Shown here: piece by piece, positions 1 to 30,614 of the stretch
Layout: each line of letters begins with the position of its first letter
How positions within the stretch are numbered: the stretch's first letter is position 1
From: a virus
Direction: 5' to 3' (one strand)
Virus record (IMG/VR): IMGVR_UViG_3300009285_000258
Coordinates: 1-32,081 of that record
Length of the DNA: 32,081 nucleotides
Translations under genes and position numbers: made by a program
The notes under the pieces: generated by a model
The model's input: only the letters and a program-made list of their open reading frames with translations
Database searches by the model: none
Told to the model about the DNA's origin: nothing

Positions 1-510
1 GTATCGAAACTTGAGTGAGGTATCGAAACAGTAGGAGTTGCTGTTGGGGGAGGGCTTGGCCCGCCACAGAATATCCCGCTCGGTTGGCTCCCCGCACTCC
101 ATGCAGGCCCCAGATGGCCCCTGATAGCGTCTGTGGCCACTCTTACACACCCAGTCGAAGGCGTGAAGGTTCTTCATGGTCGGCACCATTGTCCAGTCAT
201 CCTGCATATCGGCCATTAACTTTGTATCAAAACCCTCATCGAAGGCGCAATGAGCGTCTATCTTCATCACGTATTTAGCTGTGCTCAGCTTGCAGAGCCT
301 GTTAGTCATGGCCCGCTGTCCGATGGGTTCTGAGACATAGACAACCGTTACATCGGGATGATCCTCGACTCCCGGCTCAGCCCACTCTCCATCTAGGCCG
401 ACGATAACCTCAGTTCGGCCGCGCTTGTTCTCCAGGATGTTCTCGACCGTCTTGGCGAGGAACATCTCCCCCCTGGCGGGTATCAGGATCGAGAGATCAT
501 ACATACTCAT
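1..510 (-). CDS. Family 2-like glycosyltransferase (partial, runs off left edge)
   Basis: The 170 visible residues have the start of a GT-A nucleotide-sugar fold: a first beta strand (LSILIPARGE), VIVGLDGEW, and at residues 83-87 KIDAH, which stands where the metal-binding DxD motif is normally found. It is a clear paralogue of the glycosyltransferase at 1521-2429, whose matching stretch is KLDEHC followed by a similar acidic segment. A Cys/His cluster at C122, H126, C136 and C139 looks like a small zinc knuckle inserted in the catalytic domain. ATG at 508-510 overlaps the preceding gene by 14 bases; a second in-frame ATG lies two codons later. The family transfers sugar from a nucleotide donor; the acceptor here is unknown. 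The C-terminus is outside the window. Confidence 0.8.
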   Translation of the reverse strand, partial: MSMYDLSILIPARGEMFLAKTVENILENKRGRTEVIVGLDGEWAEPGVEDHPDVTVVYVSEPIGQRAMTNRLCKLSTAKYVMKIDAHCAFDEGFDTKLMADMQDDWTMVPTMKNLHAFDWVCKSGHRRYQGPSGACMECGEPTERDILWRAKPSPNSNSYCFDTSLKFRY

Positions 511-991
511 CGACGATCTCCCTGACGGTCATGCGCCGTCCGGTGATATTCATCTCGCAGTTCCAGGGAGGGATAAGGTCTATCCAATGGAGAAACTCCT
601 CCTTGTTCACCATGTAGCGGTAGACATTCTGAATCTCCAGCTTCTCTCCTCGGTGCTTCTGCTCCCGAAAGTGATTGATAAGCGTGTCTGTGTTATTGCC
701 CCAGGTGATATTGCCGAGACGGATGATCGTCCAGTTCGTAAATCCCTTGACCAACCGCTCCATATGGCGCTTATGCTGGGCGTAGGGGGTGTCCGAATAG
801 AAGACGCAGAGTGAACTGAAGTAGACGATGTGCTTCTCGGGCTGCGAGAGGAGCAGATTGATCTCTCTCTGATACTCTGATCTCTTTGTTTCCCCGCTAT
901 AACTAACGCCCGAGGCAAAAAATAACAGATCGTCTCTGTCCTTTAGGGCGCTGGCGATGTCTCCGTGGCCGATAATCATTTCTGGAACCAC
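497..991 (-). CDS. Short NAD(P)-dependent epimerase/dehydratase-like protein
   Basis: This 164-residue protein resembles a shortened extended-SDR enzyme. It has an N-terminal Rossmann-like turn (IGHGDIASAL), an SS strand end (YFSSL), a YAQHK motif matching the catalytic YxxxK, and a following RLGNITWGNN segment like the RLGNI of sugar epimerases. The enzyme at 20542-21306 has the same order of motifs but is 90 residues longer, so this copy may have lost part of the substrate domain. It overlaps the methyltransferase upstream by 16 bases and the glycosyltransferase downstream by 14, which implies translational coupling in a sugar-modification cluster. Activity is inferred, not certain. Confidence 0.65.
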   Translation of the reverse strand: MVPEMIIGHGDIASALKDRDDLLFFASGVSYSGETKRSEYQREINLLLSQPEKHIVYFSSLCVFYSDTPYAQHKRHMERLVKGFTNWTIIRLGNITWGNNTDTLINHFREQKHRGEKLEIQNVYRYMVNKEEFLHWIDLIPPWNCEMNITGRRMTVREIVDEYV

Positions 992-1524
992 CAGCTAGGT
1001 TGTCTGTCATCTCGATGAGCGTCCTTATCATACCCCGTGGTCTGAAGATCGTAACCGTATTCCTTGGTATATTCATCCACCGCCCTCACCACCCCATCGT
1101 TACCGCTCCTGAAGATGTAGTAGTCATGTCCCGAGACAATCCCGCCCCTGCGCACCTTCGGCGCCCAGGCCGCAATGTCCGCCCTCACATATTCGTAGTC
1201 ATGGTTGCCGTCAATAAACACGAAGTCTAGGGCTTCAAATGGTACCAACTTGGCTGCCTCTACGCTCAAGGCCAGGACAAACTCGTAGTAGGCGTAGGGG
1301 GCCAGACGCTTCTTCGCCCCCTCGTAAGCCTTCCTGAGCGTATCCTGGCTTCGGTAGGATGTATACTCGGGATAGGTCATATACGGGTCAACGCCATAAA
1401 GCGTCAGCCCTGGGATCTCCTGCATCAGGATCTCTGAGTAGCGCCCATCGCAGACGCCGACCTCAACGCCCTTGGTAAACCCCAGCGCGGCGAAGTGTTT
1501 AGCGAGCTCGATACGATTCTTCAT
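976..1524 (-). CDS. Class I SAM-dependent methyltransferase (Methyltransf_24-like)
   Basis: The 182-residue protein has motif I (VEVGVCDGRYSE) near residues 20-31, an acidic end to strand 2 (YGVDPY), and a late FVFIDGNHDYEYV segment followed by RRGGIVSGHDYY. That set is typical of the small sugar or antibiotic O-methyltransferases grouped in Methyltransf_24. It probably methylates a sugar or small group made by the neighbouring glycosyltransferases. Its ATG overlaps the stop of the glycosyltransferase upstream (ATGA), and its end overlaps the epimerase-like gene. The real substrate cannot be read from the sequence. Confidence 0.75.
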   Translation of the reverse strand: MKNRIELAKHFAALGFTKGVEVGVCDGRYSEILMQEIPGLTLYGVDPYMTYPEYTSYRSQDTLRKAYEGAKKRLAPYAYYEFVLALSVEAAKLVPFEALDFVFIDGNHDYEYVRADIAAWAPKVRRGGIVSGHDYYIFRSGNDGVVRAVDEYTKEYGYDLQTTGYDKDAHRDDRQPSWWFQK

Positions 1525-2429
1525 TCTTCAGCCTTGTCTATTGCTAGCTGCTCTTGCCAGTTTTCCATCCAGCCGGGCATGGTCGGAAACTTCTCGATGA
1601 ACCAAGCGAAGTCACGAACGCGCTTGTCCCATTTGTCGCCCAGCCAGAAGTCGATTGTGAACAGCCGGCCCATCTCGTTATCCACGGCTCGCTTGGCATA
1701 TTGTCCTTTGGAGAAACGGTAGCCCTTGCCTCGGAACGTACCCTTGTGCATATGAGCATACCATGTTTTCTTATTAACTTTTAGAGCCCCACCCGAGAGC
1801 CAGGCTTTCATCCCGATCTCTTGAGCCTCGCAGGTAAACGGCCCGTAGTTCTCGTCCTCCATCCGAACGATAAACTCATCCCAGAAGGAACGCTTCATAA
1901 AGTAGCAGGAGCCCTGCATCGAGGGGGTATCATCGATCAGGATGTCCCTGCGTTCGTGCCACGGCTGCTTCCACTCGGCTCCATGTAGCCCACAAGTATG
2001 GTCTCGGCGCCGCTCGTAGGGATAGGAGAGGTACATATAGTCAATCGGTGGTCGACCATCCTCGATGATAGACCAAGTGTCAGGATCAAGGCGATAGCGT
2101 CTTGGAATCACCACCCAGTTATCCTCGCAGTCGGCTATGAGCTTATTATCCCAGCCCTGATCCATCATGCAGTGCTCGTCTAGCTTCATAATGTATTCAC
2201 CTCGGGAGATAGCGACCCCGGCGTTGATGGATGCCCTCATCCCTCTATTATCAAACATAGTTCCGTGGTGGATGACGGTTAGCCGCTTGTCCGGCCTGAG
2301 AACTGGAGACGTCCAGCAGCCGTCGAGGACAACAATAACCTCGACCTCCCCCTCCGCCTTCGCCAGAACGTCCTCTACGGTTGGTTGAAGATAGCGGTCA
2401 TCCCTCGAGGGGATAATCACCGAGACCAT
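1521..2429 (-). CDS. Family 2-like glycosyltransferase
   Basis: The 302-residue protein opens with a GT-A signature: VSVIIPSRDD, VIVVLDGCW and MKLDEHC at residues 81-87, where DEH takes the place of DxD. It is complete and is the closest relative in this window of the truncated enzyme at the left edge, suggesting tandem duplication. It likely moves a sugar from a nucleotide donor onto a phage virion or host surface acceptor. The ATG overlaps the TAA of the preceding small gene (TAATG), and the stop overlaps the methyltransferase start, so it belongs to one tightly coupled cassette. Confidence 0.82.
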   Translation of the reverse strand: MVSVIIPSRDDRYLQPTVEDVLAKAEGEVEVIVVLDGCWTSPVLRPDKRLTVIHHGTMFDNRGMRASINAGVAISRGEYIMKLDEHCMMDQGWDNKLIADCEDNWVVIPRRYRLDPDTWSIIEDGRPPIDYMYLSYPYERRRDHTCGLHGAEWKQPWHERRDILIDDTPSMQGSCYFMKRSFWDEFIVRMEDENYGPFTCEAQEIGMKAWLSGGALKVNKKTWYAHMHKGTFRGKGYRFSKGQYAKRAVDNEMGRLFTIDFWLGDKWDKRVRDFAWFIEKFPTMPGWMENWQEQLAIDKAEE

Positions 2430-2752
2430 TATGTTTTGGTGATCGAGGTAATCTTGTTACTAGCGTCAAAGGTGAGCGCCAGGGTGGCGGTCGTCGATCC
2501 CCCGGAGCCACCACTCTTAAAGGTGAGCGTCTGGTAGTTGCCGTTTCCATCGGCGTTGGTGAAGCCCAAGTAGTCAGAGCGCGGGATTCCAAGTCCATCA
2601 GCCGTCTCGACGTTGCCGGAAGCATCGACCTTGACTGGCTGCAGCGCCGTACCGTCGTAGCCGTATAAGAGCGTCTTGAGGATCTCGAAGGTAGGCTCGT
2701 AGCTACGATTTAATATTGATTGGGCGCTATCCTTGGTGTCAGGTTGTGGCAA
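2429..2752 (-). CDS. Hypothetical phage protein, Gly/Thr-rich C-terminus
   Basis: The 107-residue protein has a helical-looking N-terminus, a central YDGTALQPVKVDASGNV stretch of a type common in small phage structural proteins, and a Gly/Ser/Thr-rich, beta-prone C-terminus with LALTFDASNKITSITKT. There are no catalytic motifs and no signal peptide. It lies between a hypothetical gene, which it overlaps by 14 bases, and a glycosyltransferase. A minor virion or decoration protein is possible; function is unknown. Confidence 0.65.
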   Translation of the reverse strand: MPQPDTKDSAQSILNRSYEPTFEILKTLLYGYDGTALQPVKVDASGNVETADGLGIPRSDYLGFTNADGNGNYQTLTFKSGGSGGSTTATLALTFDASNKITSITKT

Positions 2753-3203
2753 GGAACTTCCTTCGCAATTCTTTAGATGACATCTCTTCGACTGGCTTCT
2801 GCTCGAACGCTTCCTTCTCGCGGACGGACTCTAAGATCTTGTTCTCGATCCGGACGAACTCGGCGAGTCGGTCTATAGCTATATACACGTTTTCGTATTC
2901 GGCTCCAGACTTCTTCATCAGAATCTTGAGTTCAGCGGCGTACCTCTCCTTGGTATCAGACTTGGAGTTGAGGTATGCATCTACTGAGTCGGCGAGTTCC
3001 TTGACGCTGAAGGTATCGTAGGCGAGAGTTCCGCCCGGGATAAGATCCATGAGGTAGGGCATCCTCCCGGCTTCCTTGTGAAGCTCCGGGGGCATCTCGT
3101 CCCCCCCTTCGGAGGCGATGTATGGGGGGGTATCGGAAGGCTTTTCCTCGGCTGGGGCGGGGACTGCTGGTTCGGCCTTGGGCTGGATGCTAAGATCGCT
3201 CAT
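2739..3203 (-). CDS. Hypothetical protein, proline-rich N-terminus and charged helical C-terminus
   Basis: The first 50 of 154 residues are Pro/Ala/Glu-rich and probably disordered. Residues 60-150 are charged and probably alpha-helical (KELADSVDAYL, RLAEFVRIENKILESVREKE), possibly coiled coil. No family is recognised. It starts four bases inside the small zinc protein gene and overlaps the next gene, so it is translated in the same late operon. A copy of the late-strand motif GTGTATATA lies inside it at 2880-2888, the only copy away from a gene junction. Confidence 0.65.
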   Translation of the reverse strand: MSDLSIQPKAEPAVPAPAEEKPSDTPPYIASEGGDEMPPELHKEAGRMPYLMDLIPGGTLAYDTFSVKELADSVDAYLNSKSDTKERYAAELKILMKKSGAEYENVYIAIDRLAEFVRIENKILESVREKEAFEQKPVEEMSSKELRRKFLATT

Positions 3204-3409
3204 ACGATCTTCCCGTCTTCAACTATAAACTCATCTCTGAGCCTCTTGCCCATTGGACAGTAGCGACATTTATAATTCATCACGCCCTCTTCGTCTCGAC
3301 CAATCGGCTCCAAGTGGTGGTCGCACTCGCCATCGAAGACAACTTCGGGCTTGAAGAGCCTGACCCCGTCCGTGTCTTCAGACTTTTCTAGGCGATCAAA
3401 CTCTTCCAC
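3200..3409 (-). CDS. Small zinc-ribbon-like protein
   Basis: The 69-residue protein carries a Cys/His set in its middle: GECDHHLEPIG followed about 15 residues later by KCRYC. This spacing fits a single structural zinc site (C-x-H-H then C-x2-C). The rest is acidic and polar. It overlaps the end of the 1269-residue virion-like protein by 22 bases and the next gene by 4. The fold call rests on the cysteines alone; the role is unknown. Confidence 0.62.
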   Translation of the reverse strand: MEEFDRLEKSEDTDGVRLFKPEVVFDGECDHHLEPIGRDEEGVMNYKCRYCPMGKRLRDEFIVEDGKIV

Positions 3410-6400
3410 GACTTCCTCTTCTTTGTCTTTAATCTTACCTTATTCTTGGGCTTGCTTCCACCCTTGGGAGCTGCGGCTAAGACCTTCGCGGTAGCGCTCT
3501 GACCCCCGCCGTACTTGGTGAGCGAAAGTTTTACTTTGGTGGAGGGGATAGAGACCTTTTTTGAGGAGGTCTTGGACCTCCTGCCACTCCTGGAGCCGTA
3601 ACCGCCATAACCCTTCCCATACTTTAATTCGTTGAATACTTTACGCTCATCTTCCTCGTAGCCGAAGGTTACATTATCGAACTGATTGGCAGAAATCGGG
3701 TCGTAACCCTCAATTTCTCGTTTAGCATTTATGACTTTTAGACGAGCGGCAGTATATACGTCAAACTCGGCGCTAAGATTGGTGGTCGCAAACATCGCTT
3801 TAGCAGCATCGGGGTTCTTGTCTCTTAACTGGAAGTATCTTTCAACTAATAGGGGTTGCTTGGCAATTCCTATTTTGTTCCATGCTTCAGCTCTAGCCCC
3901 TTGAGAACTTTTGACACCGAGCTTTTTGAAGTATTCAGTATTGGCGGTTCCATAGGCTCTCTCAGCGGTCTCAAAAGCTGTATACCAGGGTTGGGTGGCT
4001 CGTAAGATTTCTTCTCGCTCTATATCTTCACCCGTCGGTCGTGAGCGCAACTCCAAAACCAATCTAACCTGTTTCTCGGTGGGCAACTTGTATATGGGGT
4101 CAACGGGTTTTTTATCTCTACTGTGGGCATTTAGAGCCTTACCCTTTAGAAAGTCATATGTTTTAAGACTATGATCCGCAGACACTAACTTCCATTTTTC
4201 GGGGCTAACTATATCGTAGAGTATCTTGCCCGTCTTTCGGTCTTTTTCCCTGCCCAAAAACTTGTCTAAACTGGGGGCTAATCCAGGGTTCTCTCGTTTG
4301 AACTTTTCGATATCTTTGAACTCGCCGTCGAAATATTCGTTTCTGCCACGCTGTTCTTCGGCTTTCTTGCGTCCGAACTGTTCGACCTTAACACCGCCGA
4401 CTCGCAGTAGTGATTGTGGGAGAGAACGGGTCTGACCGTAATAGTTTTCCTTCTTATCCAGTGAGGCTTTGATTGAATTGGCATCTGAGGCATACGGCAA
4501 GAGCGACATCCCCAAATAGTTGAGCCTATTCTTCTTTTGTTCGTCCTTGGATAACGGTTGAGATGGATATTTTTCGGCATCTGGGTCGGCTATTTGTTTA
4601 CCCCTGAAATCTCTATTGGCAACCAACGACGCTAATGGCCCTAGGAGTGGGTCGGCGCTAATGGCTTGTGGGCTTAAGTGGATACCAGTTTCGTCTTTTT
4701 TGAGTGGAATCTGCCATGGTAGGTAACGCTTGACATCCTCTTGCAACCCGCCAGTCAGGTCGTTGTAGGTTGTTAGGCCGAGCAACCGTCCAAGATTTAT
4801 AGCCCCCCACGGAGATTGAATCTCTAGGCTCTGATTGGTAAACGGTACTCTCGGAGCGCCCAATCGCTCTTCACGGGTTTTACGGTCTTCGGGGGTTTCC
4901 CCAGACATTTTGCTTGCTACATTTACCAGGGTGGTTGCAGCCACCGCCGATGTTGCTAGTCTAATTGGGTTGTCAGCAGCAGTATTATGAGCGATACGCA
5001 ATAGTTCGGAAGAGAATCGGATAAAGGCATTACCAATAAGGGGGGTTTTGGCTCCTTGGTCAAACATAAATCCAACCAAATCATAGTTTTGTTGCATGCG
5101 TCTCGTTCGTTCGGCAGCTTCAGCGATAGGTAGCCCTCGCTCCCTGAAGGTTAAATAGGTCGCCATTTTAGCTTTATCATCGACCGCCTGGTAGGTATCG
5201 CCAACAATCTTTATCCCTCGTTTTGCAATATTCTGTTTGGGTACTATATCGCCAGTACGGTAGAGTTCTTTTTGGATCATGCTGGGGCTAAATATACCGG
5301 CTCTGGTAGCTTCCAGAAACTCGGGGGAGTTAGATTTCATCATCTTGCCCCCCCTAACCCAATTCCGGTTAAGAGTAATCGGGTTGATGCCATTTAACCC
5401 GGCAATTAGGTTGTTAAAAGTTCTGTTTCCCAGTCTAACCCCAGGATTAAAGATGGTCAGGACTGCTTTTCTGGCTCGACGTAATCCTATGCGGTCGTAG
5501 CGATTTAGGAGCGAGATGATGTCTTGTGCCACACCGGTCTCGTAAATAAACCCTTGTAGATCCTCGGCTTGCTCTTTGAGAACGTGCTTACCTGCCAAAC
5601 TACCATAGGCCTTATTATCCGGTATCTGGACATAACCCTTCTTGGGGGCGGGTGAAATAGAACCATTTTTACTCAACCAGTCAGAATATTGAACGAACGC
5701 TTTATTGCGCTGGAACTGCTGGACCCTCATGGCGGTTAAGAAATAGGGGTCAGTTTCGGCTGCCTTGATTACCTCGCTTGGTATATCGGACAGGTCTTTG
5801 CGGGGCTTGAATATGTTAAGTTCCATCTTGTTGTTCTTGGCAATTTGGCGCATGGGGTCATCTTCAAAGAACTTGCTCATATCCCTAGGGAAGTAGGTAC
5901 CTTTGTTTGCCTTATATCTGGTTTTGTCTAGTAACCCCAGTTTATAATTGCCCTCATGGGTTATATCCATAATCTTGCGTAAGCGAGCGGTTTCTCTGAC
6001 CTCGGCTGATGTTATAGTCAACGGCTTACCGCCCCTAGCGGTATAAAGCTGCGGGTCAAGAGCTGACGCTACCGCTTCTGGGCGAACACCGCCCTGTATA
6101 GCTTTTTCGCCACTTTTAGCAATGGATTTTCCATAAACATCTCCGAGTTGTCTCTCGCCAGCATAAACTCCTAGCCTTGACAGCTCCTCGCGGCTCTTAC
6201 CGGCTTGTTTGGAGACTCCGACAACGAACCGTCCGGGTGTCCTAGCTATACGACTACCCGATTCCAAGGAAGCTCTTACTAATTTATCTGCCCCTCGTTC
6301 GACTGGCTGAGTAAGTTTACGGGCTTGACGGTCAATTGATAGCTTTTCGGCTAATTTGCCCAGTGGTCGTTCTTTATAGGCGACCACTCCCCTGGGGCCG

Positions 6401-7197
6401 AGTATAGTTTCTTCTAGTCGTTGGTCTATACTCCCCTGACCCGCTTTTCTAACAGGAGCTTTAACCGGGGGAAGAGCGGGGGCTGTCTTACCTACTTGTG
6501 GGGGTTGGGTCGGCTTGGGGGCTAGCTTCCCCACCGCCCCTACCTCACCGAGCGCGGCATTACCCCTAGCAGCTGCTCTCGCTCCGACCGAGATGCCTCG
6601 CAGCACAGCCGGGGCGCCCCTCAAGACACCTCCGCCTGCCGCCGGAAGGGCTACATCGGTCAAAGTGGGGTTTCGATTCTCGCTGAGCGCGGTTGAGGTT
6701 CCCAACCCGCCTCCCCGAAGTATCTCTGATCCGACCTTGAGAGCAGTACCCCCCGCTCGAAGGATCGGAGCAGAGACCAGAACGGTGCCTCCGATGTCTC
6801 CAACGGCTTCTTTCCCAGTCTTCCACTGCCGAAGACCCAACTGATCCTGGAGTGCGACTCGGTTAGGTTCACTCTTGATTCCGAGAGCTTTGTTGGTAGC
6901 CCGTGATGCACCCCCCAGGACGTTGTAAGAGAGGTTGAGCGGTTGCCTAACAACGTCTGTTGTAAATCCCCCAACACCCCCTAGGATCCTCCCTGCGCCT
7001 GAGTTTATAAACTTGGGCTTGGGGCGGGCTAGGGACTGAGCTCTGGGTCCGTAGTAACCAGAAAGCTCCCGCTGCCTGATCTGCGGATTTGTAGCCCGGA
7101 AGTTACCGCTCGAGCGCGGAGGCGTTAGGTCAATGTAATCCTGCAGCGGACGGAGGGCCTTGCCAGCCTCTCGGGAGAGCCATGAGAGTACGCTCAT
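3388..7197 (-). CDS. Very large virion-associated protein (putative internal or ejected protein)
   Basis: At 1269 residues this is the longest gene in the window, placed just after the tail genes. The N-terminal 200 residues contain hydrophobic Gly/Ala-rich stretches (GGVGGFTTDVV, GGTVLVSAPILRAGG), then a proline-rich linker. Residues 250-800 are mixed and basic, with a hydrophobic segment near LATSAVAATTLVNVAS. The C-terminal 70 residues are strongly basic and low-complexity (KPKNKVRLKTKKRK). No enzyme motif was found. Its size, position and alternating hydrophobic and basic regions resemble the internal virion or ejection proteins of short-tailed phages and polyvalent phage proteins. That assignment is inference from context; no domain was identified. 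Confidence 0.8.
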   Translation of the reverse strand: MSVLSWLSREAGKALRPLQDYIDLTPPRSSGNFRATNPQIRQRELSGYYGPRAQSLARPKPKFINSGAGRILGGVGGFTTDVVRQPLNLSYNVLGGASRATNKALGIKSEPNRVALQDQLGLRQWKTGKEAVGDIGGTVLVSAPILRAGGTALKVGSEILRGGGLGTSTALSENRNPTLTDVALPAAGGGVLRGAPAVLRGISVGARAAARGNAALGEVGAVGKLAPKPTQPPQVGKTAPALPPVKAPVRKAGQGSIDQRLEETILGPRGVVAYKERPLGKLAEKLSIDRQARKLTQPVERGADKLVRASLESGSRIARTPGRFVVGVSKQAGKSREELSRLGVYAGERQLGDVYGKSIAKSGEKAIQGGVRPEAVASALDPQLYTARGGKPLTITSAEVRETARLRKIMDITHEGNYKLGLLDKTRYKANKGTYFPRDMSKFFEDDPMRQIAKNNKMELNIFKPRKDLSDIPSEVIKAAETDPYFLTAMRVQQFQRNKAFVQYSDWLSKNGSISPAPKKGYVQIPDNKAYGSLAGKHVLKEQAEDLQGFIYETGVAQDIISLLNRYDRIGLRRARKAVLTIFNPGVRLGNRTFNNLIAGLNGINPITLNRNWVRGGKMMKSNSPEFLEATRAGIFSPSMIQKELYRTGDIVPKQNIAKRGIKIVGDTYQAVDDKAKMATYLTFRERGLPIAEAAERTRRMQQNYDLVGFMFDQGAKTPLIGNAFIRFSSELLRIAHNTAADNPIRLATSAVAATTLVNVASKMSGETPEDRKTREERLGAPRVPFTNQSLEIQSPWGAINLGRLLGLTTYNDLTGGLQEDVKRYLPWQIPLKKDETGIHLSPQAISADPLLGPLASLVANRDFRGKQIADPDAEKYPSQPLSKDEQKKNRLNYLGMSLLPYASDANSIKASLDKKENYYGQTRSLPQSLLRVGGVKVEQFGRKKAEEQRGRNEYFDGEFKDIEKFKRENPGLAPSLDKFLGREKDRKTGKILYDIVSPEKWKLVSADHSLKTYDFLKGKALNAHSRDKKPVDPIYKLPTEKQVRLVLELRSRPTGEDIEREEILRATQPWYTAFETAERAYGTANTEYFKKLGVKSSQGARAEAWNKIGIAKQPLLVERYFQLRDKNPDAAKAMFATTNLSAEFDVYTAARLKVINAKREIEGYDPISANQFDNVTFGYEEDERKVFNELKYGKGYGGYGSRSGRRSKTSSKKVSIPSTKVKLSLTKYGGGQSATAKVLAAAPKGGSKPKNKVRLKTKKRKSWKSLIA

Positions 7198-7200
7198 GGC

Positions 7201-7986
7201 TTAACCTCCGTAGAGAAACTTGTCGAGCTCCGACTGAGGTTTATTCTGAGCCTGCCGGGTAGATGTGCCCCCTATATTGGCGTTTGGCGAGAACCGTGCG
7301 ATCCCCGGAGAGGCCATCAGCGGGGTGCTGGTGTTAATTGCCTTCGGCTGGAGCGTCGGGATGCTCGCGTTGAGACCCGAACTGTAGTCGCCGCCAGTAT
7401 AGCTTCCCCCGCTCAAATTATAGTCAGAGAGTGCTTGTGCGAGGGCATCCTGGTTAGCAGCCTCAAACTGGCCCTTGGCGAAGTCGATCTTGGTCTGATT
7501 ATTTCCAAAGTCCGTGTTAGTGTCGTCCACGCCCTGTTTGTAGGCACTTAGAATCTTCTGGTTGTAGTTGCCAATCTGGGACTGGAAGGCATCGGGAGAG
7601 ATCTGTGAGAAGTAAGACGAGTTCTGCTGATCAGCGGTCTCCCTGGAGGACTGGAGATCTCGGAGGTTGCGGTCCCGAGTATCTCTAATCATGTTCTGCT
7701 GGTCTTCAAAGCTCAAGAGTCCGGCCTGATACGCTCGATTGATAGCGGCCACCGTTCGGTTGTATCCTTCTAACGAAGCCTGGAGCTGTTCGGCAGTATA
7801 GATAGTCGATCCCCCAGTATCTGTGCTAGCCGTACCATCTCCAGTCGTGGTATCCGACGAGGTCGATATGGTGCTGCCGTCAGAAGGCTGGAGAGAACCA
7901 TAGGCAGGCTGCAAGTCGTAGCTAGATCCCTGTAGGTAAGGGTCCGATCCCTGTAGTGTGCCGTAAGCATCCTGTAATACTGCCAC
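7201..7986 (-). CDS. Virion-associated protein with N-terminal LQ repeats
   Basis: The 261-residue protein starts with GTG. The first 35 residues repeat a short unit (YGTLQGS, PYLQGS, YDLQPA, YGSLQPS), followed by a Ser/Thr/Gly/Asp linker and a Gln/Asn-rich helical middle (residues 65-175). The C-terminus is Ser/Gly/Asn-rich and ends in ELDKFLYGG. It lies three bases before the giant virion-like protein and behind the tail spike-like gene, so a structural or ejected role is likely. A weak SD (AGAGAG) precedes the start. The GTGTATATA motif lies about 30 bases upstream and directly follows the upstream stop. Confidence 0.68.
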   Translation of the reverse strand: MAVLQDAYGTLQGSDPYLQGSSYDLQPAYGSLQPSDGSTISTSSDTTTGDGTASTDTGGSTIYTAEQLQASLEGYNRTVAAINRAYQAGLLSFEDQQNMIRDTRDRNLRDLQSSRETADQQNSSYFSQISPDAFQSQIGNYNQKILSAYKQGVDDTNTDFGNNQTKIDFAKGQFEAANQDALAQALSDYNLSGGSYTGGDYSSGLNASIPTLQPKAINTSTPLMASPGIARFSPNANIGGTSTRQAQNKPQSELDKFLYGG

Positions 7987-8015
7987 GATGATCTCTCTTA
8001 TCTTGTGCTGCTATT

Positions 8016-21631: not shown

Positions 21632-23101
21632 TCATAGTGTAAACCCCCCCACATTTGCGCCCCCAAATCCGGCGGCGACGGGGATATAGACCGGGCCAGT
21701 CTCCGGTTTAGCCTCGGACTGATACATCTGGAAGGCTCCGGCGAGGCTCATCACCAGGTCATCGTGGGCTCCCGACTCTGCTTGGGCCCGCCACGATGTT
21801 GAGGTCGGCACCACCACGAACGAGAACATCTCAGTGATCGTTGGCTTGTCGTAGATCTCAAGCATCTCGTTGTCGATTGCCTCCTTGAGGTCTTGGAGCA
21901 TCTTCGGGCGAGAGGCGGAGTTCGTATCCCATCCGAGCTTCGGAGAGTCAGAGGTCATCCGAGACGATCCGATGCCACGCTTCTGGTGGTAGATCTGGTA
22001 CTTGGCGAGTTTGTTGAGCCGGGCCAAGCGCTCGAGTTCAAAGACCCCCCCGTTGTTGCGCTCATAGGCGATGACCGGCGGGACTCCGGTGAGATCGGAG
22101 ATCCGCTCCAGTTCGTGGTGGAGAATCGGGGTCATCTCGGTGGCCAGGATCTTCTGGTGGAAGACCTGCGGGACATCGAGGTGACTATGGGAGAAGAACT
22201 GGGCCGCACAGTAGTCTAACCCCCCAGCCGCAGTGTCGGCAAAACAGACCACAAACTCCCCCGGCTCGAAATCCCGGTAGCGGCGGAAGCCATCCTTGTT
22301 GCTGGTTGGTTCACGCGTATTCTTGAGATAGCTCGCCAATGCCTCTTGGTCGAAGTAGGAGGACCCGGAGGTGATAAAAGCAGTCTGGGGGTCTTTGGGG
22401 TGCTCTTGGTCAAATAGCCTGCCCAATCGCTTACGCTCTCTGTCCAGATACTCTTCGGGATAGAACTCCTGCGAGGCGAAGAAATGCGGCTTAAAGCCAG
22501 TCTCACCGCGTTCGGAATCGTCCCAGAAAGATTTGAACTCATCGAATCCATTAGCGGTGGTCTCGATAAAGAAGTTCCCACCCGGCACGACAGCCGATCC
22601 AGCCCCGGCTAAGAGGCCTGATTTACTTGGGTAGAAGGCAAACTCCGAAAGATGGAGGTTAGAGATCGTCTTGGAGCGGCCAAAGGATTGGTTTTGGGCG
22701 GTGCCGATGATATAGCGAGACTCCTGGGCGGAGTTGACGATCTCATACTTGGAGTTATAGCGAAGTGGGATCTTGAGATCGTGCTTGCGCTCATAGCTCT
22801 TGATGAAATGCTTGACCCTGGTTAAGAGATCTTGGGCGTTATCGGTGGTATCGGCCACAACGGTTGAAAGCGAGTGCTTCTTCATCAGGAAGTCGGTGGC
22901 AAAGAGCGCCAAGATCAGGCTGGAGAATCCCATCTGACGCCCCTTCAGGATGATGTCTCGGCTGCTCTTTTGTTCCAGAAATCTCAGCTGCATAGGGTTG
23001 AGTTTGAAGGGAACCTCATGGCCGGACTTGTCGACAATGGTAAAATTCTCTTCGATGAATTCGCGGTAGCCCTTCTTCTTTTTTCCCTTCGCATTGCTCA
23101 T
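21632..23101 (-). CDS. terL: Terminase large subunit
   Basis: The 489-residue protein has both halves of a packaging motor. The ATPase has Walker A GRQMGFSS at residues 54-61 and a Walker B ending NLHLSEFAF with catalytic E153, followed by the coupling segment FFIETTANG. The nuclease (RNase H fold) has acidic residues at CFADT (D289), IAYERNNGG (E347) and SGAHDDLVMS (D447/D448). It cuts concatemers and pumps DNA through the portal. The start lacks an SD and lies two bases after a TGTTATGNTAGATA motif, so its mRNA may be leaderless. TerS is upstream, beyond a 703-base non-coding gap. Confidence 0.93.
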   Translation of the reverse strand: MSNAKGKKKKGYREFIEENFTIVDKSGHEVPFKLNPMQLRFLEQKSSRDIILKGRQMGFSSLILALFATDFLMKKHSLSTVVADTTDNAQDLLTRVKHFIKSYERKHDLKIPLRYNSKYEIVNSAQESRYIIGTAQNQSFGRSKTISNLHLSEFAFYPSKSGLLAGAGSAVVPGGNFFIETTANGFDEFKSFWDDSERGETGFKPHFFASQEFYPEEYLDRERKRLGRLFDQEHPKDPQTAFITSGSSYFDQEALASYLKNTREPTSNKDGFRRYRDFEPGEFVVCFADTAAGGLDYCAAQFFSHSHLDVPQVFHQKILATEMTPILHHELERISDLTGVPPVIAYERNNGGVFELERLARLNKLAKYQIYHQKRGIGSSRMTSDSPKLGWDTNSASRPKMLQDLKEAIDNEMLEIYDKPTITEMFSFVVVPTSTSWRAQAESGAHDDLVMSLAGAFQMYQSEAKPETGPVYIPVAAGFGGANVGGFTL

Positions 23102-24264: not shown

Positions 24265-24293
24265 TTGACAACGTGTTTATGGAGGAGTATGTT
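24265..24293 (+). promoter_or_regulatory. Early rightward promoter, sigma-70 type
   Basis: A perfect -35 (TTGACA, 24265-24270) is followed by 17 bases and TATGTT (24288-24293) as the -10. It sits in the divergent gap after TerS and is the best housekeeping promoter in the window, so it should drive the early operon from about 24300. The -10 overlaps a small hairpin (GTATGT/ACATAC, 24287-24303). Confidence 0.7.
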
Positions 24294-24322
24294 GGACACA
24301 TACCGAGGAAGTAGCCGGAGGA

Positions 24323-24413
24323 ACCCCACAAAAGAAGCACCTAGCGACCAGCACCGCGGTTAGATCACCGCTTACCAAAGGATTAGCTGCCACCGCTCAC
24401 CGCTTCTAGGGGT
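24323..24413 (+). other. Leader stem U0 of the inverted-repeat chain
   Basis: ACCCC and AGAAGC (24323-24338) pair with GCTTCT and GGGGT (24402-24413), giving 5+6 pairs around an internal loop. Inside is a perfect hairpin GCGGT/ACCGC (24356-24371) and two of three copies of TCACCGCTT (24365-24373, 24397-24405; third at 24903-24911). No gene is enclosed. It is the weakest member of the chain. Confidence 0.45.
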
Positions 24414-24473
24414 CATCAGTTAACAACATATCATAGATCACAAGCTCCGAGGTAGTAAATAGGAGACGAGAAA

Positions 24474-24626
24474 ATGCAGATTGTAGTAACATGCCTCAAG
24501 GTAGCGAACGGCTGGAATGCGGTATGGTATCGGCCTAGCACTGGCGAATTCTACCGCGAAACCGCCGGATCAAAGACCGCCACCATCGAGAAGCTAGTCT
24601 CCACCTTGGAGGCAAAGCTAGCTTAA
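24474..24626 (+). CDS. Early hypothetical protein, 50 residues
   Basis: ATG at 24474 has a good SD (AGGAG, seven bases before it) and opens 50 codons: MQIVVTCLKVANGW at the N-terminus, then WYRPSTGEFYRETAG and a Thr/Glu/Lys helix ending EAKLA. It is probably a small alpha/beta protein; no family is recognised. It is the first gene after the early promoter, so it is likely expressed soon after infection, as are many host-takeover and anti-defence proteins, though no such activity is shown. The whole gene lies inside inverted repeat U1, and its stop codon is in the loop of a perfect hairpin. Confidence 0.62.
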   Translation: MQIVVTCLKVANGWNAVWYRPSTGEFYRETAGSKTATIEKLVSTLEAKLA

Positions 24627-24635
24627 TTGCTAGCT
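24616..24635 (+). other. Perfect hairpin containing the stop codon
   Basis: AGCTAGC, loop TTAATT and GCTAGCT form a seven-pair perfect stem; the TAA stop of the 50-residue gene is in the loop. No T-run follows, so it is not a classical terminator. Its last two bases overlap the 3' arm of U1. Confidence 0.55.
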
Positions 24636-24648
24636 CGGAGCTTGTGAG

Positions 24649-24932
24649 ATAGATAGCAGCAGCGAGAGCGAGCAGAAAGGGACAAACCAATGACCTATGT
24701 TAAGTCTGAAGTCGTCAAGCGAACCAAAAACACCATCAAGGGTCACTTCAAGCTCTCCGACAAATCGATCACGTTCTTCTCGATTGACAAAGAGTATGGA
24801 TGGCAGCAATGGGGTAACAACAGAGACAATCTAAGCCTAACCGTAGATAGGGTAGATACTCTTCAAGGAGAATTACTAGACTTCTAACCCAACCGCACGC
24901 AGTCACCGCTTGCTCTCACTCATGCTATCTAT
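24649..24932 (+). other. Inverted repeat U2 bracketing a 65-residue gene
   Basis: Arm 24649-24673 pairs with arm 24908-24932: ten pairs, a 2x2 internal loop, two pairs, one mismatch, then ten pairs including one G.U. The 5' arm ends 16 bases before the enclosed start codon; the 3' arm starts 20 bases after the stop. The arms have no sequence relation to those of U1 or U3. Confidence 0.7.
24690..24887 (+). CDS. Early hypothetical protein, 65 residues
   Basis: The protein is small and probably beta-rich: KRTKNTIKGHFKLSDKSITFFSIDKEYGWQQWG followed by NLSLTVDRVDTLQGELLDF. The alternation of charged and hydrophobic residues suggests a compact beta barrel or sandwich. It is not recognised. AAGGGA supplies a moderate SD. 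It is the second early cistron and lies wholly inside inverted repeat U2. Like its neighbours it may be a host-interaction gene; this is inference from position only. Confidence 0.65.
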   Translation: MTYVKSEVVKRTKNTIKGHFKLSDKSITFFSIDKEYGWQQWGNNRDNLSLTVDRVDTLQGELLDF

Positions 24933-24980
24933 AGATCATCTCTACCAAGTGAACCGAGGAAAGTCAGGAGAACAATCACC

Positions 24981-25163
24981 ATGAGTGAAGATTCCATTGA
25001 CCGCAACCCCCAACATGACGAGTGGCTGGATGAGCTTTTCCCAGAAATTACCATCGGACAGCTCATCTACTCGCCCAGCGAAACCCTCTACTCAGTCGAT
25101 CCTATCGCCTATCGGCAGTCCGTGCTTGATTGGGAGGATCAGGAGGGAAAAGACAATGACTAA
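24981..25163 (+). CDS. Early acidic hypothetical protein, 60 residues
   Basis: The 60-residue protein is strongly acidic (SEDSIDRNPQHDEWLDELFPE at the N-terminus, DWEDQEGKDND at the end) with a short hydrophobic middle (ITIGQLIYS). Small acidic proteins made early by phages can mimic DNA or bind host enzymes, but nothing here proves that. CAGGAG gives the SD, 11 bases before ATG. The last eight bases overlap the next gene, so the two are coupled and share the U3 inverted repeat. Confidence 0.62.
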   Translation: MSEDSIDRNPQHDEWLDELFPEITIGQLIYSPSETLYSVDPIAYRQSVLDWEDQEGKDND

Positions 25164-25356
25164 AAAAGACTTCGAGCTAATTGCGGAGAGCCTCCGAGAG
25201 TCATTCAACGACCTAAAACAGTTTGACCTTAGAGACGAAGTCGTACACGAGGCGTTTGAGCACATCGTCAACAACCTCGCCCTCGCCCTATCAGTAACAA
25301 ACCCCAAGTTCGACCAAGCCCGATTTATTAAGGCTTGCGGAGTCGAACCAGAATAA
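25156..25356 (+). CDS. Early helical hypothetical protein, 66 residues
   Basis: With ATG at 25156, preceded by AGGAGG, the protein is 66 residues and almost wholly helical (KKDFELIAESLRESFNDLKQ, VVHEAFEHIVNNLALALS), ending FDQARFIKACGVEPE. The arrangement is of a type common in unannotated phage proteins; no function is known. A longer in-frame extension exists but overlaps the previous gene completely and lacks an SD. It is the second gene inside the perfect U3 inverted repeat. Confidence 0.65.
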   Translation: MTKKDFELIAESLRESFNDLKQFDLRDEVVHEAFEHIVNNLALALSVTNPKFDQARFIKACGVEPE

Positions 25357-25389
25357 ACTAATCGCTCCTCGGTTCACTTGGTAGAGATG

Positions 25390-25495
25390 ATAGTCTTTCC
25401 CCGCCGCGTGGCAGTAGGTGCCTTAATGTGGCAGCCAACGCCGCTAGGCTAAATATAGTTGGATAGCCTACTGCTGCGCGCAGGGGAGAGACTAT
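25390..25495 (+). ncRNA. Long imperfect hairpin U4 without a gene
   Basis: Arm 25390-25419 pairs with 25466-25495: 13 pairs, a 2x2 internal loop, then 15 more, with four G.U pairs when read as plus-strand RNA. The apical part folds again: CCAAC (25435-25439) with GTTGG (25458-25462), capped by GCC/GGC around GCTA. The total is about 106 bases with no start codon and SD pair. This looks like a stable structured RNA, possibly a processed small RNA. No known family is recognised. Confidence 0.6.
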
Positions 25496-25498
25496 TCC

Positions 25499-25551
25499 TA
25501 GCTGATCGGTAGGTCTTGGAATTTGAGACTCCTTCTCCTACTGGTCAGCTA
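25499..25551 (+). ncRNA. Hairpin U5 without a gene
   Basis: Arm 25499-25513 pairs fully with 25537-25551 (15 pairs, two of them U.G or G.U) around a 23-base apical region with a possible short inner stem (25514-25517 with 25525-25528). It begins three bases after U4 ends and lies 30 bases before the next gene. No T-run follows, so it is not a classical terminator. Confidence 0.55.
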
Positions 25552-25581: not shown

Positions 25582-25716
25582 ATGTTAGGCAAGTACGCAC
25601 GAGGTTGGAAGAAAGTCAATTCCGCGAAAACCGACTGGGTTTTGACGTTCGCATTCGGAGCTTGTGGAATTGTGATCGGATGGTGGCTGGCCTGGATAAT
25701 GTGGTGGGCAATATGA
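25582..25716 (+). CDS. Small membrane protein, 44 residues
   Basis: ATG is preceded by an almost perfect SD (AAGGAGGTGA). The protein has a basic N-terminus (LGKYARGWKKVNSAKTD) and one long hydrophobic segment rich in Trp (residues 18-44, WVLTFAFGACGIVIGWW then LAWIMWWAI), so it should insert in the cytoplasmic membrane with its N-terminus inside. Its TGA overlaps the next ATG. Holin, superinfection exclusion or an accessory membrane role are all possible; nothing decides between them. Confidence 0.65.
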   Translation: MLGKYARGWKKVNSAKTDWVLTFAFGACGIVIGWWLAWIMWWAI

Positions 25717-25916
25717 AAAAGCTACACGTAATCGCAATCGGATTGCTGTTAGTCATCGTGGGAGCCGTACTGCTCGTGGGGATAAGAGATCAAGTGGCCT
25801 CTGGGTCCACGATTGCTCCGCAGCGCGGGACTATACAGCCAGCCAAGCAGGACTATCAGTATCAAGGTGACTGGGCTTACTTAATTCAGCCCGCCGTGGG
25901 TGGAAACAACCGATAA
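25713..25916 (+). CDS. Small membrane-anchored protein, 67 residues
   Basis: Starting at the ATG that overlaps the previous stop (ATGA), the protein has MKKLH, a 19-residue membrane segment (VIAIGLLLVIVGAVLLVG), then a polar, probably periplasmic or extracellular part containing Tyr and Gln (PAKQDYQYQGDWAYLIQP). No lipobox Cys is seen, so it is a signal anchor rather than a lipoprotein. It is coupled to the 44-residue membrane protein and followed by a strong terminator. A two-component lysis or exclusion pair is one option. Confidence 0.65.
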   Translation: MKKLHVIAIGLLLVIVGAVLLVGIRDQVASGSTIAPQRGTIQPAKQDYQYQGDWAYLIQPAVGGNNR

Positions 25917-25923
25917 CACCACT

Positions 25924-25957
25924 AACCCACAAGGAAATCAAGCCTTGTGGGTTTTTG
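25924..25957 (+). terminator. Strong rho-independent terminator
   Basis: AACCCACAAGG (25924-25934) and CCTTGTGGGTT (25943-25953) form a perfect 11-pair stem with loop AAATCAAG, followed by TTT. It ends the first early unit; RepO downstream therefore needs its own promoter or antitermination. Confidence 0.88.
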
Positions 25958-25983: not shown

Positions 25984-26063
25984 CCGAGTACAGCGGCTTT
26001 TCGAAAGCAAGGGTCGGCCCCTCACTGTACTTGGGGGGCCGACTCGTGTTTTTAGGAGGAAAG
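25984..26063 (+). promoter_or_regulatory. Structured leader of the RepO gene with conflicting helices
   Basis: Two stems compete topologically. Stem A: CCGAGTACAG (25984-25993) with CTGTACTTGG (26025-26034). Stem B: 26011-26021 with 26035-26045, 11 pairs, GC-rich, then GTGTTTTT like a terminator. The 3' strand of A forms most of the loop of B. A third hairpin (GCTTT/AAAGC, 25996-26008) lies between. Stem B is followed at once by the T-run and the SD AGGAGGA. The arrangement suggests an attenuator, riboswitch-like or pseudoknot control of replication initiation; the ligand or trigger is unknown. Confidence 0.6.
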
Positions 26064-26495
26064 ATGGCAAGGCCACAGGTCAAAGAGGGATATATCAGAA
26101 TAGCTACTGAGTTATGGGAAGCTCTGGCTATGGCTCAGATAAGTGGTACTGATTTTAGGGTACTGTTCGCTATCAGTCGACTCACCTATGGCTACCATAA
26201 GAAGTCTGCCAAGATCAGTTACGGTAGGGTGGCCAAAATGTGCGGGCTAGACCGTAGCAACGCTTTTAGATCTATGCATAGCCTAAAAAAGCTAGGAGTT
26301 ATTTATTCACAGGATACTGCCCCAGGAGAGGCGCGAGTTTGGGGGCTCGTCAAAGACTACGAGCAATGGGGAGTGGCTATTGGTGAACCCACCACTAGCA
26401 AAAAGCCCCCTATTGGCAAGGACACCAATACCCCCAAGCCTACTAGCCCTAAAAAGAGGCCAGCGAACTATGACCCAATCTGGGACTCCTTCTAA
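26064..26495 (+). CDS. RepO-like replication initiator
   Basis: With ATG at 26064 (SD AGGAGGA) the protein is 143 residues. Residues 5-80 match the N-terminal domain of lambda O-type proteins: QVKEGYIRIATELWEAL, then DFRVLFAISRLTYGYHKKSAKISYGRVAKMCGLDR and a recognition helix (SNAFRSMHSLKKLGVI). That is a winged HTH that binds origin repeats. The C-terminal 50 residues are Pro/Thr/Lys-rich; lambda O uses its C-terminus to recruit helicase loading factors. The coding sequence contains TATTGGTG-type repeats, as the lambda origin lies inside O. The DnaB-like helicase is two genes downstream. Confidence 0.82.
   Translation: MARPQVKEGYIRIATELWEALAMAQISGTDFRVLFAISRLTYGYHKKSAKISYGRVAKMCGLDRSNAFRSMHSLKKLGVIYSQDTAPGEARVWGLVKDYEQWGVAIGEPTTSKKPPIGKDTNTPKPTSPKKRPANYDPIWDSF
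26378..26430 (+). repeat. TATTGGTG iteron-like sites inside the RepO gene
   Basis: TATTGGTG occurs at 26378-26385 and inverted at 26423-26430, with the variant TATTGGCA at 26411-26418. The same octamer is in the TerS-TerL repeats at 23684-23691 and 23707-23714. In lambda the O protein binds iterons inside its own gene, so this is a candidate origin. Confidence 0.4.
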
Positions 26496-29785: not shown

Positions 29786-29925
29786 ATAATCTACGAATTG
29801 TCCTTGGTTCTATTATAATCTTCGTCTACGCCCTTCTGGGAATCATTATTTTGTTTTGGGGTTTGATTTGGTTCGCAAACTTACTCCTTTGGCTCTCAGG
29901 CTTACTTCCTTGGCCGCAATCATGA
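29782..29925 (+). CDS. Small membrane protein, 47 residues
   Basis: ATG at 29782 follows SD GAGGAGAG and overlaps the previous stop (ATGA). The 47 residues are almost entirely hydrophobic: LRIVLGSIIIFVYALLGIII and LFWGLIWFANLLLWLSGLL, enough for one long or two close-packed membrane helices. Its stop overlaps the next start as ATGA. It could be a holin or a membrane accessory protein; evidence is only the hydropathy. Confidence 0.62.
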   Translation: MNNLRIVLGSIIIFVYALLGIIILFWGLIWFANLLLWLSGLLPWPQS

Positions 29926-30614
29926 CTAAGCACTACAAGTTCCTCAACCTCAAGCGAGGTAAGATAGTCTCAGCTTCCGGCAATCAGAAGTGGAAGCTGG
30001 GCGAGTGGGTAAAGCATGACGGGAAGTTGGAGATGTGCAGTTCCGGTCTTCACTCCTCCCCGACTGTCTACCAAGCCCTCTCCTACGTCCCAGGAAGCGT
30101 GCTATCTCAAGTCGAGGTCAAGGGTAAGAGCCTCAAGGATAAAGATAAGTGGTGCTCCTCCGAGATGCGGATCATCCGGGCTTGGAAATGGCAGAAGAAA
30201 GACTCTATGGCTTTGGCTATCTTTGCGGCAGAGTCGGTTCTAAAGAACTTCGAGAAGAAGTATCCAGATGATAAACGACCCCGTGAGGCTATCGAGGCTG
30301 CCAAGAAGGTTCTAGCCAGTGATACAGCTAAAAATAGAGAGGCCGCCTCCTCCGCCTCCTCCGCCGCCTCCTCCGCCTACGCCGCCTACGCCTCCTCCGC
30401 CTACGCCGCCTCCGCCGCCTCCTCCGCCGCCTCCTCCGCCTCCTACGCCGCCTCCGCCGCCTCCTCCGCCTCCTCCTCCGCCTCCGCCGCCTCCTACGCC
30501 TCCTCCGCCGCCTACGCCGCCTCCTACGCCGCCTCCTACGCCTCCGCCCTTATCAAGAGAGTAGACCGATGGATGACTGACCACATTAAGGAATTGGGGG
30601 AGATAAAATCGTGA
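29922..30614 (+). CDS. DUF7666-like protein with an Ala/Ser/Tyr repeat tail
   Basis: I chose ATG at 29922 because it forms an ATGA overlap with the membrane protein. The N-terminal 110 residues (HYKFLNLKRGKIVSASGNQKW, LEMCSSGLHSSPTVYQALSY, SVLSQVEVKGKSLKDKDKW) match a pattern I recall for DUF7666-type phage proteins, in which a cysteine-containing core is followed by Ala-rich repeats. Residues 141-209 consist only of Ala, Ser and Tyr (30342-30548). A charged C-terminal helix follows. The function is unknown; the tail may be a long Ala-packed coiled coil. Confidence 0.7.
   Translation: MTKHYKFLNLKRGKIVSASGNQKWKLGEWVKHDGKLEMCSSGLHSSPTVYQALSYVPGSVLSQVEVKGKSLKDKDKWCSSEMRIIRAWKWQKKDSMALAIFAAESVLKNFEKKYPDDKRPREAIEAAKKVLASDTAKNREAASSASSAASSAYAAYASSAYAASAASSAASSASYAASAASSASSSASAASYASSAAYAASYAASYASALIKRVDRWMTDHIKELGEIKS
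30342..30548 (+). repeat. Three-codon tract (GCC, TCC, TAC), 69 codons
   Basis: From 30342 to 30548 every codon is GCC (Ala), TCC (Ser) or TAC (Tyr), in frame for 69 codons. The other possible codon of this pattern, GAC, is absent. The tract is purine-poor on the plus strand and resembles an expanded microsatellite. It should be prone to slippage in 3-base steps that keep the frame. Confidence 0.9.

What the first reader, a model, noticed from the sequence alone, without database searches (positions are those of the whole stretch)
24323..25551. Chain of abutting inverted repeats, each bracketing its own early gene unit
Five consecutive long helices (U1-U5, plus a weaker U0) cover the first early genes. 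U1, U2 and U3 enclose one, one and two complete genes; the 5' arm ends 16-22 bases before the start codon and the 3' arm starts 7-20 bases after the stop. Neighbouring helices are separated by only 0-3 bases and their arm sequences are unrelated, so this is not one repeat copied. Imperfect positions include seven G.U pairs when read as plus-strand RNA against one C.A, the expected bias if RNA folding is selected. Possible roles: RNase III release of individual mRNAs (as for rRNA precursors), protection of 5' and 3' ends, translation timing, or a DNA cruciform element. I know no described phage element of this design.
Basis: partly seen in the sequence, partly recalled or inferred. Interest (0 to 1): 0.88.

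Follow-up and report, generated by a model that had tools for sequence, protein, structure and literature searches.

The report
Stem-wrapped early genes of a phage
The first early genes of an uncultured virus, apparently a bacteriophage, lie one unit after another inside the loops of long back-to-back RNA stems with unrelated arm sequences, an arrangement that is real, rare and probably serves to cut the early transcript into separate end-sealed messages, although nothing about its function has been tested.

Summary
Between a sigma-70-like promoter (24265-24293) and a terminator (25924-25953) five strong helices (U1-U5; arm-duplex energies -24 to -52 kcal/mol) cover 24438-25551 with 0-5 bases between them. 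U1, U2 and U3 enclose one, one and two complete small genes. U4 and U5 are gene-free hairpins. U0 is not supported. The arms are orthogonal: cognate pairs -24 to -52, non-cognate -6 to -17 kcal/mol. No dinucleotide shuffle of the region (200) came near it, and 1.09 Mb of other phage DNA holds one comparable long-loop stem per ~37 kb. Plus-strand G.U pairs exceed C.A pairs only weakly when scored neutrally (6:2). Conservation could not be tested: closest relatives are 5-kb fragments without the early region, and a relative with 57% identical major capsid protein has a different early region without the stems. The design is not unique: two otherwise unrelated viral contigs carry single stems of 21-31 nt around small genes, including homologues of gene 4. 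Best reading: RNA elements on the early transcript, most likely RNase III-type processing or end-sealing stems, giving separate, end-paired short mRNAs (topology of pre-rRNA stems, purpose like T7 early mRNA). Cleavage is inference. New variant of a known kind.

The parts
24265..24293 (+). sigma-70-like promoter TTGACA-17-TATGTT; transcription expected to start near 24300
   Evidence: consensus scan, 10 of 12 matches, no + strand promoter-like site between the helices
24312..24422 (+). U0, weak leader structure; not supported as a long helix
   Evidence: z -1.48, 14 of 200 shuffles fold as well
24438..24463 (+). U1 5' arm
24474..24626 (+). gene 1, 50 aa, inside U1; no homologue found
24622..24647 (+). 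U1 3' arm (innermost 4 bp overlap the stop codon of gene 1)
24649..24673 (+). U2 5' arm
24690..24887 (+). gene 2, 65 aa, inside U2; weak similarity to Gordonia phage hypothetical proteins
   Evidence: E 6e-3
24908..24932 (+). U2 3' arm
24935..24960 (+). U3 5' arm, 26 of 26 paired
24981..25163 (+). gene 3, 60 aa, inside U3; phrog_37123/phrog_9294, homologues in Vequintavirinae
25156..25356 (+). gene 4, 66 aa, inside U3, overlaps gene 3; small phage family with N-terminal motif MTKKDFELIA (phrog_19432)
25366..25391 (+). U3 3' arm
25389..25496 (+). U4, gene-free hairpin with branched loop (arms 25389-25419 / 25466-25496)
   Evidence: z -8.0
25499..25551 (+). U5, gene-free 15-bp hairpin
   Evidence: z -5.9
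25582..25716 (+). gene 5, 44 aa, outside the stems, strong ribosome-binding site AAAGGAGGTG
25713..25916 (+). gene 6, 67 aa, overlaps gene 5
25924..25953 (+). intrinsic-terminator-like hairpin that closes the early unit

Best explanation
The chain is a set of RNA elements in one early transcript that starts near 24300 and ends near 25953. As each gene unit is transcribed, its 3' arm pairs with its own waiting 5' arm, so that each gene or gene pair, with its ribosome-binding site, sits in the loop of a stem of about two helical turns. A double-strand-specific nuclease, most likely host RNase III, cuts within the stems and U4/U5, releasing short mRNAs whose 5' and 3' ends are base-paired to each other and so shielded from exonucleases and 5'-end-dependent decay. 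Orthogonal arm sequences keep each 3' arm from pairing with the wrong 5' arm. Shown: the helices in the sequence, their rarity, their orthogonality, their placement round whole genes between promoter and terminator, and the recurrence of single units elsewhere. Inferred: that they form in vivo, that they are cut, and that end-sealing is the benefit.
For: Helices far beyond shuffles and beyond the rest of the genome and dominant in the predicted ensemble. Arm sequences orthogonal: cognate duplexes -24 to -52, non-cognate -6 to -17 kcal/mol. Arms fill much of the intergenic spaces, leave ribosome-binding sites in the loops, and most 5'-arm bases of U1-U3 are free of local competitors (61-71% unpaired when pairing is limited to 130 nt). 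No promoter-like site between units and a single terminator at the end, so separate mRNAs would need processing. U1-U4 stems are 25-31 positions long, enough for RNase III: a 12-bp stem allows single-strand cleavage and full pairing allows double cleavage, and loops of bacterial targets range from four to thousands of nt (PMC8708148). Independent instances: L038, from a 143.8-kb contig, has 27-nt and 21-nt stems round single genes with the 5' arm ending 17 nt before the start in both; L028 has a 31-nt stem round two overlapping genes, the second a gene-4 homologue, at the start of a divergent early operon as in U3. G.U exceeds C.A on the transcribed strand 12:4 over the three contigs, one-sided p 0.04.
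Against: No close relative with the early region was found, so there is no covariation test. A relative with 57% identical major capsid protein (L013/L014) has a different early region and no such stems. Only 2 of about 30 gene-4 loci in other phages are strongly bracketed, so the stems are not needed by the gene family. U2 is imperfect (2 mismatches and a C.A). Nothing shows cleavage; long stems could instead hinder translation or hasten decay, as in icaR (PMC3868564).
Confidence: 0.5

Rival explanations
1. The stems form in the early RNA but are not cut for release; they act as end-to-end structures that tune translation or lifetime of each cistron (5'-3' pairing as in icaR), or as barriers against read-through ribosomes and exonucleases.
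For: Same geometry would result; 5'-3' UTR pairing with RNase III sensitivity and decay is documented for S. aureus icaR (PMC3868564). In L038 the 5' arm begins 11-12 nt after a repeated promoter-like motif, so at or very near the probable 5' end of a single-unit transcript, where release from a polycistronic RNA is not needed.
Against: Ribosome-binding sites are mostly left outside the helices, unlike icaR where the Shine-Dalgarno is paired. Back-to-back placement of 25-26 bp stems looks like cutting sites.
Confidence: 0.3
2. DNA-level elements: cruciforms, recombination or inversion sites, or ends of mobile cassettes round each gene.
For: They are inverted repeats in DNA, and U4 and U5 could extrude.
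Against: Loops of 158-405 bases in U1-U3; arm sequences of the units unrelated, so no common recombinase or transposase site; G.U tendency on the transcribed strand; arms of the other contigs also unrelated.
Confidence: 0.07
3. Chance or neutral by-product with no function as a chain.
For: No conservation evidence; long inverted repeats do occur (29 strong long-loop stems in 1.09 Mb of phage DNA).
Against: At one per about 37 kb, three in 1 kb bracketing consecutive genes plus two strong hairpins are not expected; shuffles never produce it.
Confidence: 0.08

Closest known systems
Bacterial pre-rRNA processing stems (RNase III duplexes flanking 16S and 23S rRNA)
   Same: Long-range duplex brackets a functional unit within one polycistronic transcript; successive units have their own stems; released by RNase III (PMC8708148).
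   Different: Here the units are protein-coding mRNAs of 150-400 nt in a phage; no rRNA; cleavage not shown; no match to any RNA family (Rfam negative).
T7 early mRNA processing by RNase III (R-sites such as R1.1)
   Same: Phage early transcript divided between genes at structured sites; processing matures and protects mRNAs (PMC8708148); T7 has 10 such sites (PMC9135205). U4 and U5 resemble such local hairpins in position.
   Different: T7 sites are local intergenic hairpins. No stem of score 36 or more with span up to 600 exists in T7 1-8000, so none of comparable strength brackets a gene.
icaR mRNA 5'-3' UTR pairing in Staphylococcus aureus
   Same: Upstream and downstream ends of one cistron pair and form an RNase III substrate (PMC3868564).
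   Different: Short motif that covers the Shine-Dalgarno and represses; here 25-26 bp stems outside the ribosome-binding site, in chain.

Membership tests
RNase III-processed phage early mRNA (T7 type) | structured double-stranded sites between early genes of one transcript | tested here: met
   predicted from sequence:
RNase III-processed phage early mRNA (T7 type) | sites are local hairpins between genes | tested here: not met
   U1-U3 pair across whole genes, loops 158-405 nt; only U4 and U5 are local
RNase III-processed phage early mRNA (T7 type) | cleavage by RNase III in infected cells | not testable with these tools
   needs RNA end mapping in rnc+ and rnc- hosts
pre-rRNA-type bracketing stems | long-range duplex formed by sequences flanking each unit of a polycistronic RNA | tested here: met
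   predicted from sequence:
pre-rRNA-type bracketing stems | enclosed unit is ribosomal RNA | tested here: not met
   Rfam negative; small ORFs, genes 3 and 4 with phage homologues
conserved structured RNA family | covariation across relatives | tested here: inconclusive
   no close relative with the region in IMG/VR or GTDB scans; distant relative lacks it
transposon or cassette inverted repeats | shared terminal sequence among units | tested here: not met
   non-cognate arm duplexes only -6 to -17 kcal/mol

The most novel reading that the evidence does not exclude
Some phages package early genes as stem-sealed mRNA units: orthogonal end-to-end stems round each cistron, in this phage chained into a self-dividing polycistron, and evolved more than once (also the contigs behind L038 and L028). 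This would be a general, undescribed way to make monocistronic, end-protected mRNAs without a promoter and terminator for each gene.
Probability: 0.35. Interest if true: 0.82.

Novelty: new variant of a known kind. Interest (0 to 1): 0.62.

Why it matters
If the stems form and are cut, this phage turns one promoter and one terminator into several separate mRNAs whose two ends are paired. That would extend the pre-rRNA principle to protein-coding genes and offer a compact, orthogonal part for building operons. It also gives a concrete, easily tested question on how early phage mRNAs survive host ribonucleases.

Tried and rejected
Close relatives with the early region: scans of IMG/VR with gene 2, helicase, terminase, nuclease and major capsid protein, and of GTDB genomes with the capsid protein, gave only 5-kb fragments, contigs that are distant or share single genes, or nothing, so no covariation model was built. 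The 39.9-kb capsid relative G006 has no chain. Gene-4 homologues in general are not bracketed: 2 of about 30 loci. Rfam: nothing. U0: rejected. G.U strand bias as strong evidence: weakened by neutral scoring. MFE z-score as proof of unusual structure: rejected because ordinary coding windows of this genome also fold well. Cruciform, invertible or mobile cassettes: rejected on loop size and unrelated arms. Amplification or assembly chimera: judged unlikely, because short unrelated arms round intact ORFs are not what such artefacts give (inference, not tested). The stem in L118 and the terminator-like pair in phage V18 (L040) were found by the survey but are not convincing examples. No described phage element of this design was found in the paper searches, which cover open-licence papers only.

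Full report
What is there. The window is a 32,081-base virus record, by its terminase, portal-like and replication genes a tailed phage. Structural genes read leftwards and the early and replication genes rightwards from about 24.2 kb. A sigma-70-like promoter (24265-24293) precedes six small genes, and a terminator-like hairpin follows the sixth at 25924-25953. Within this unit lie five strong helices: U1 round gene 1, U2 round gene 2, U3 (26 perfect pairs) round genes 3 and 4, then two gene-free hairpins U4 and U5. Genes 3 and 4 have homologues in other phages; gene 2 has weak similarity; gene 1 has none.

More than chance. With a stem score that allows G.U, the five helices score 64, 57.5, 47, 40.5 and 34. 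In 200 dinucleotide-preserving shuffles of the region the best stem averaged 27.6 and never passed 40. Five of the seven best plus-strand stems of the whole window with span up to 500 fall in these 1.1 kb. In 1,085,225 bases of other phage DNA, 29 long-loop stems of score 40 or more were found, one per 37 kb; six met a loose criterion of bracketing a sense gene, three of them from the two contigs chosen because they have it. U4 and U5 have folding z-scores of -8.0 and -5.9; U0 has -1.5 and is dropped. The total energy of the region (z -9.6 against shuffles) is a poor argument, since it is only about 2 SD from other windows of the same genome.

Anatomy. Neighbouring helices are 0-5 nt apart, so the intergenic spaces are mainly two back-to-back arms plus a ribosome-binding site. 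Every 5' arm pairs strongly only with its own 3' arm: -24 to -52 against -6 to -17 kcal/mol. If pairing is limited to 130 nt, 61-71% of the 5'-arm bases of U1-U3 are unpaired, so they could wait for their partners. No promoter-like site lies on the plus strand between the helices.

Relatives. Capsid relatives at 84-86% identity exist only as 5-kb fragments without this region. The 57% relative G006 has a different early region and no chain. Covariation therefore could not be tested. A scan with gene 4, whose family has a strikingly constant N-terminus MTKKDFELIA, gave 17 contigs. Two show the same principle. In L038 (143.8-kb contig) a 27-nt stem surrounds the gene-4 homologue, with arms 17 nt before the start and 20 nt after the stop, and a 21-nt stem surrounds another small gene, again 17 nt before its start; both stems begin 11-12 nt after the same motif GAAACTTAACAATTT, as if the 5' arm lay at the start of the transcript. 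In L028 a 31-nt stem surrounds two overlapping genes, the second a gene-4 homologue, at the head of an early operon that diverges from the terminase genes, as in the window. Arm sequences are unrelated between contigs. Most other gene-4 loci have no such stem.

Mechanism. The geometry is that of pre-rRNA, where RNase III duplexes flank 16S and 23S rRNA (PMC8708148), applied to protein genes. The purpose may be like T7, whose early transcript is matured and protected by RNase III cuts (PMC8708148; PMC9135205). T7 sites are local: no stem of score 36 or more and span up to 600 lies in T7 1-8000. The stems are long enough for RNase III, and loop size is no obstacle. I therefore prefer processing with end-sealing (about 0.5), then stems that seal or tune without release (0.3). 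icaR shows that 5'-3' pairing can also repress and trigger decay (PMC3868564). All steps after the existence of the helices in the sequence are inference.

Verdict. A real and rare architecture, seen in single-unit form in two other viral contigs, with no published phage counterpart found in the open-licence papers searched. I file it as a new variant of RNA processing and stabilising stems. It is neither a T7-type site (bracketing instead of local) nor an rRNA stem (mRNA instead of rRNA).

Noticed in passing
window 24636-24647 and 25655-25666: Twelve bases of the U1 3' arm (TCGGAGCTTGTG) recur exactly inside gene 5, so the U1 5' arm could alternatively pair with gene 5 mRNA (pair I8); by a rough estimate rarer than chance for all arms together.
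   Followed up: no
window 26011-26045: A second strong terminator-like hairpin lies directly before the ribosome-binding site of the replication O-like gene at 26067, which could be an attenuator of the replication operon.
   Followed up: no
L038 about 3600, 4930 and 6345 (G023 94165, 92833, 91418): A motif GAAACTTAACAATTT (one mismatch in the third copy) precedes three small genes, probably a phage-specific promoter; two of the three units carry bracketing stems.
   Followed up: partly
L028 4727-4739: The 5' arm of the bracketing stem contains TGTTCTTTGATAA, close to the rRNA antitermination boxA as remembered; not tested.
   Followed up: no
window 21635-23101, L010: The terminase relative at 48% identity (L010) lies in a phage that is otherwise almost unrelated, while the capsid relative G006 has another terminase: module exchange.
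   Followed up: partly
window 30312-30584: Alanine/serine-rich repetitive C-terminal part of a protein with DUF7666 and weak Imm5-like matches (29922-30611).
   Followed up: no
L040 3248-3618: In Escherichia phage V18 two similar terminator-like hairpins flank gene V18_00175 and can cross-pair.
   Followed up: no
window 25156-25356, alignment A2: Gene 4 belongs to a small phage protein family with a near-invariant MTKKDFELIA start and a conserved C-terminal FDRxRFLxACG-like part across very different phages; function unknown.
   Followed up: partly
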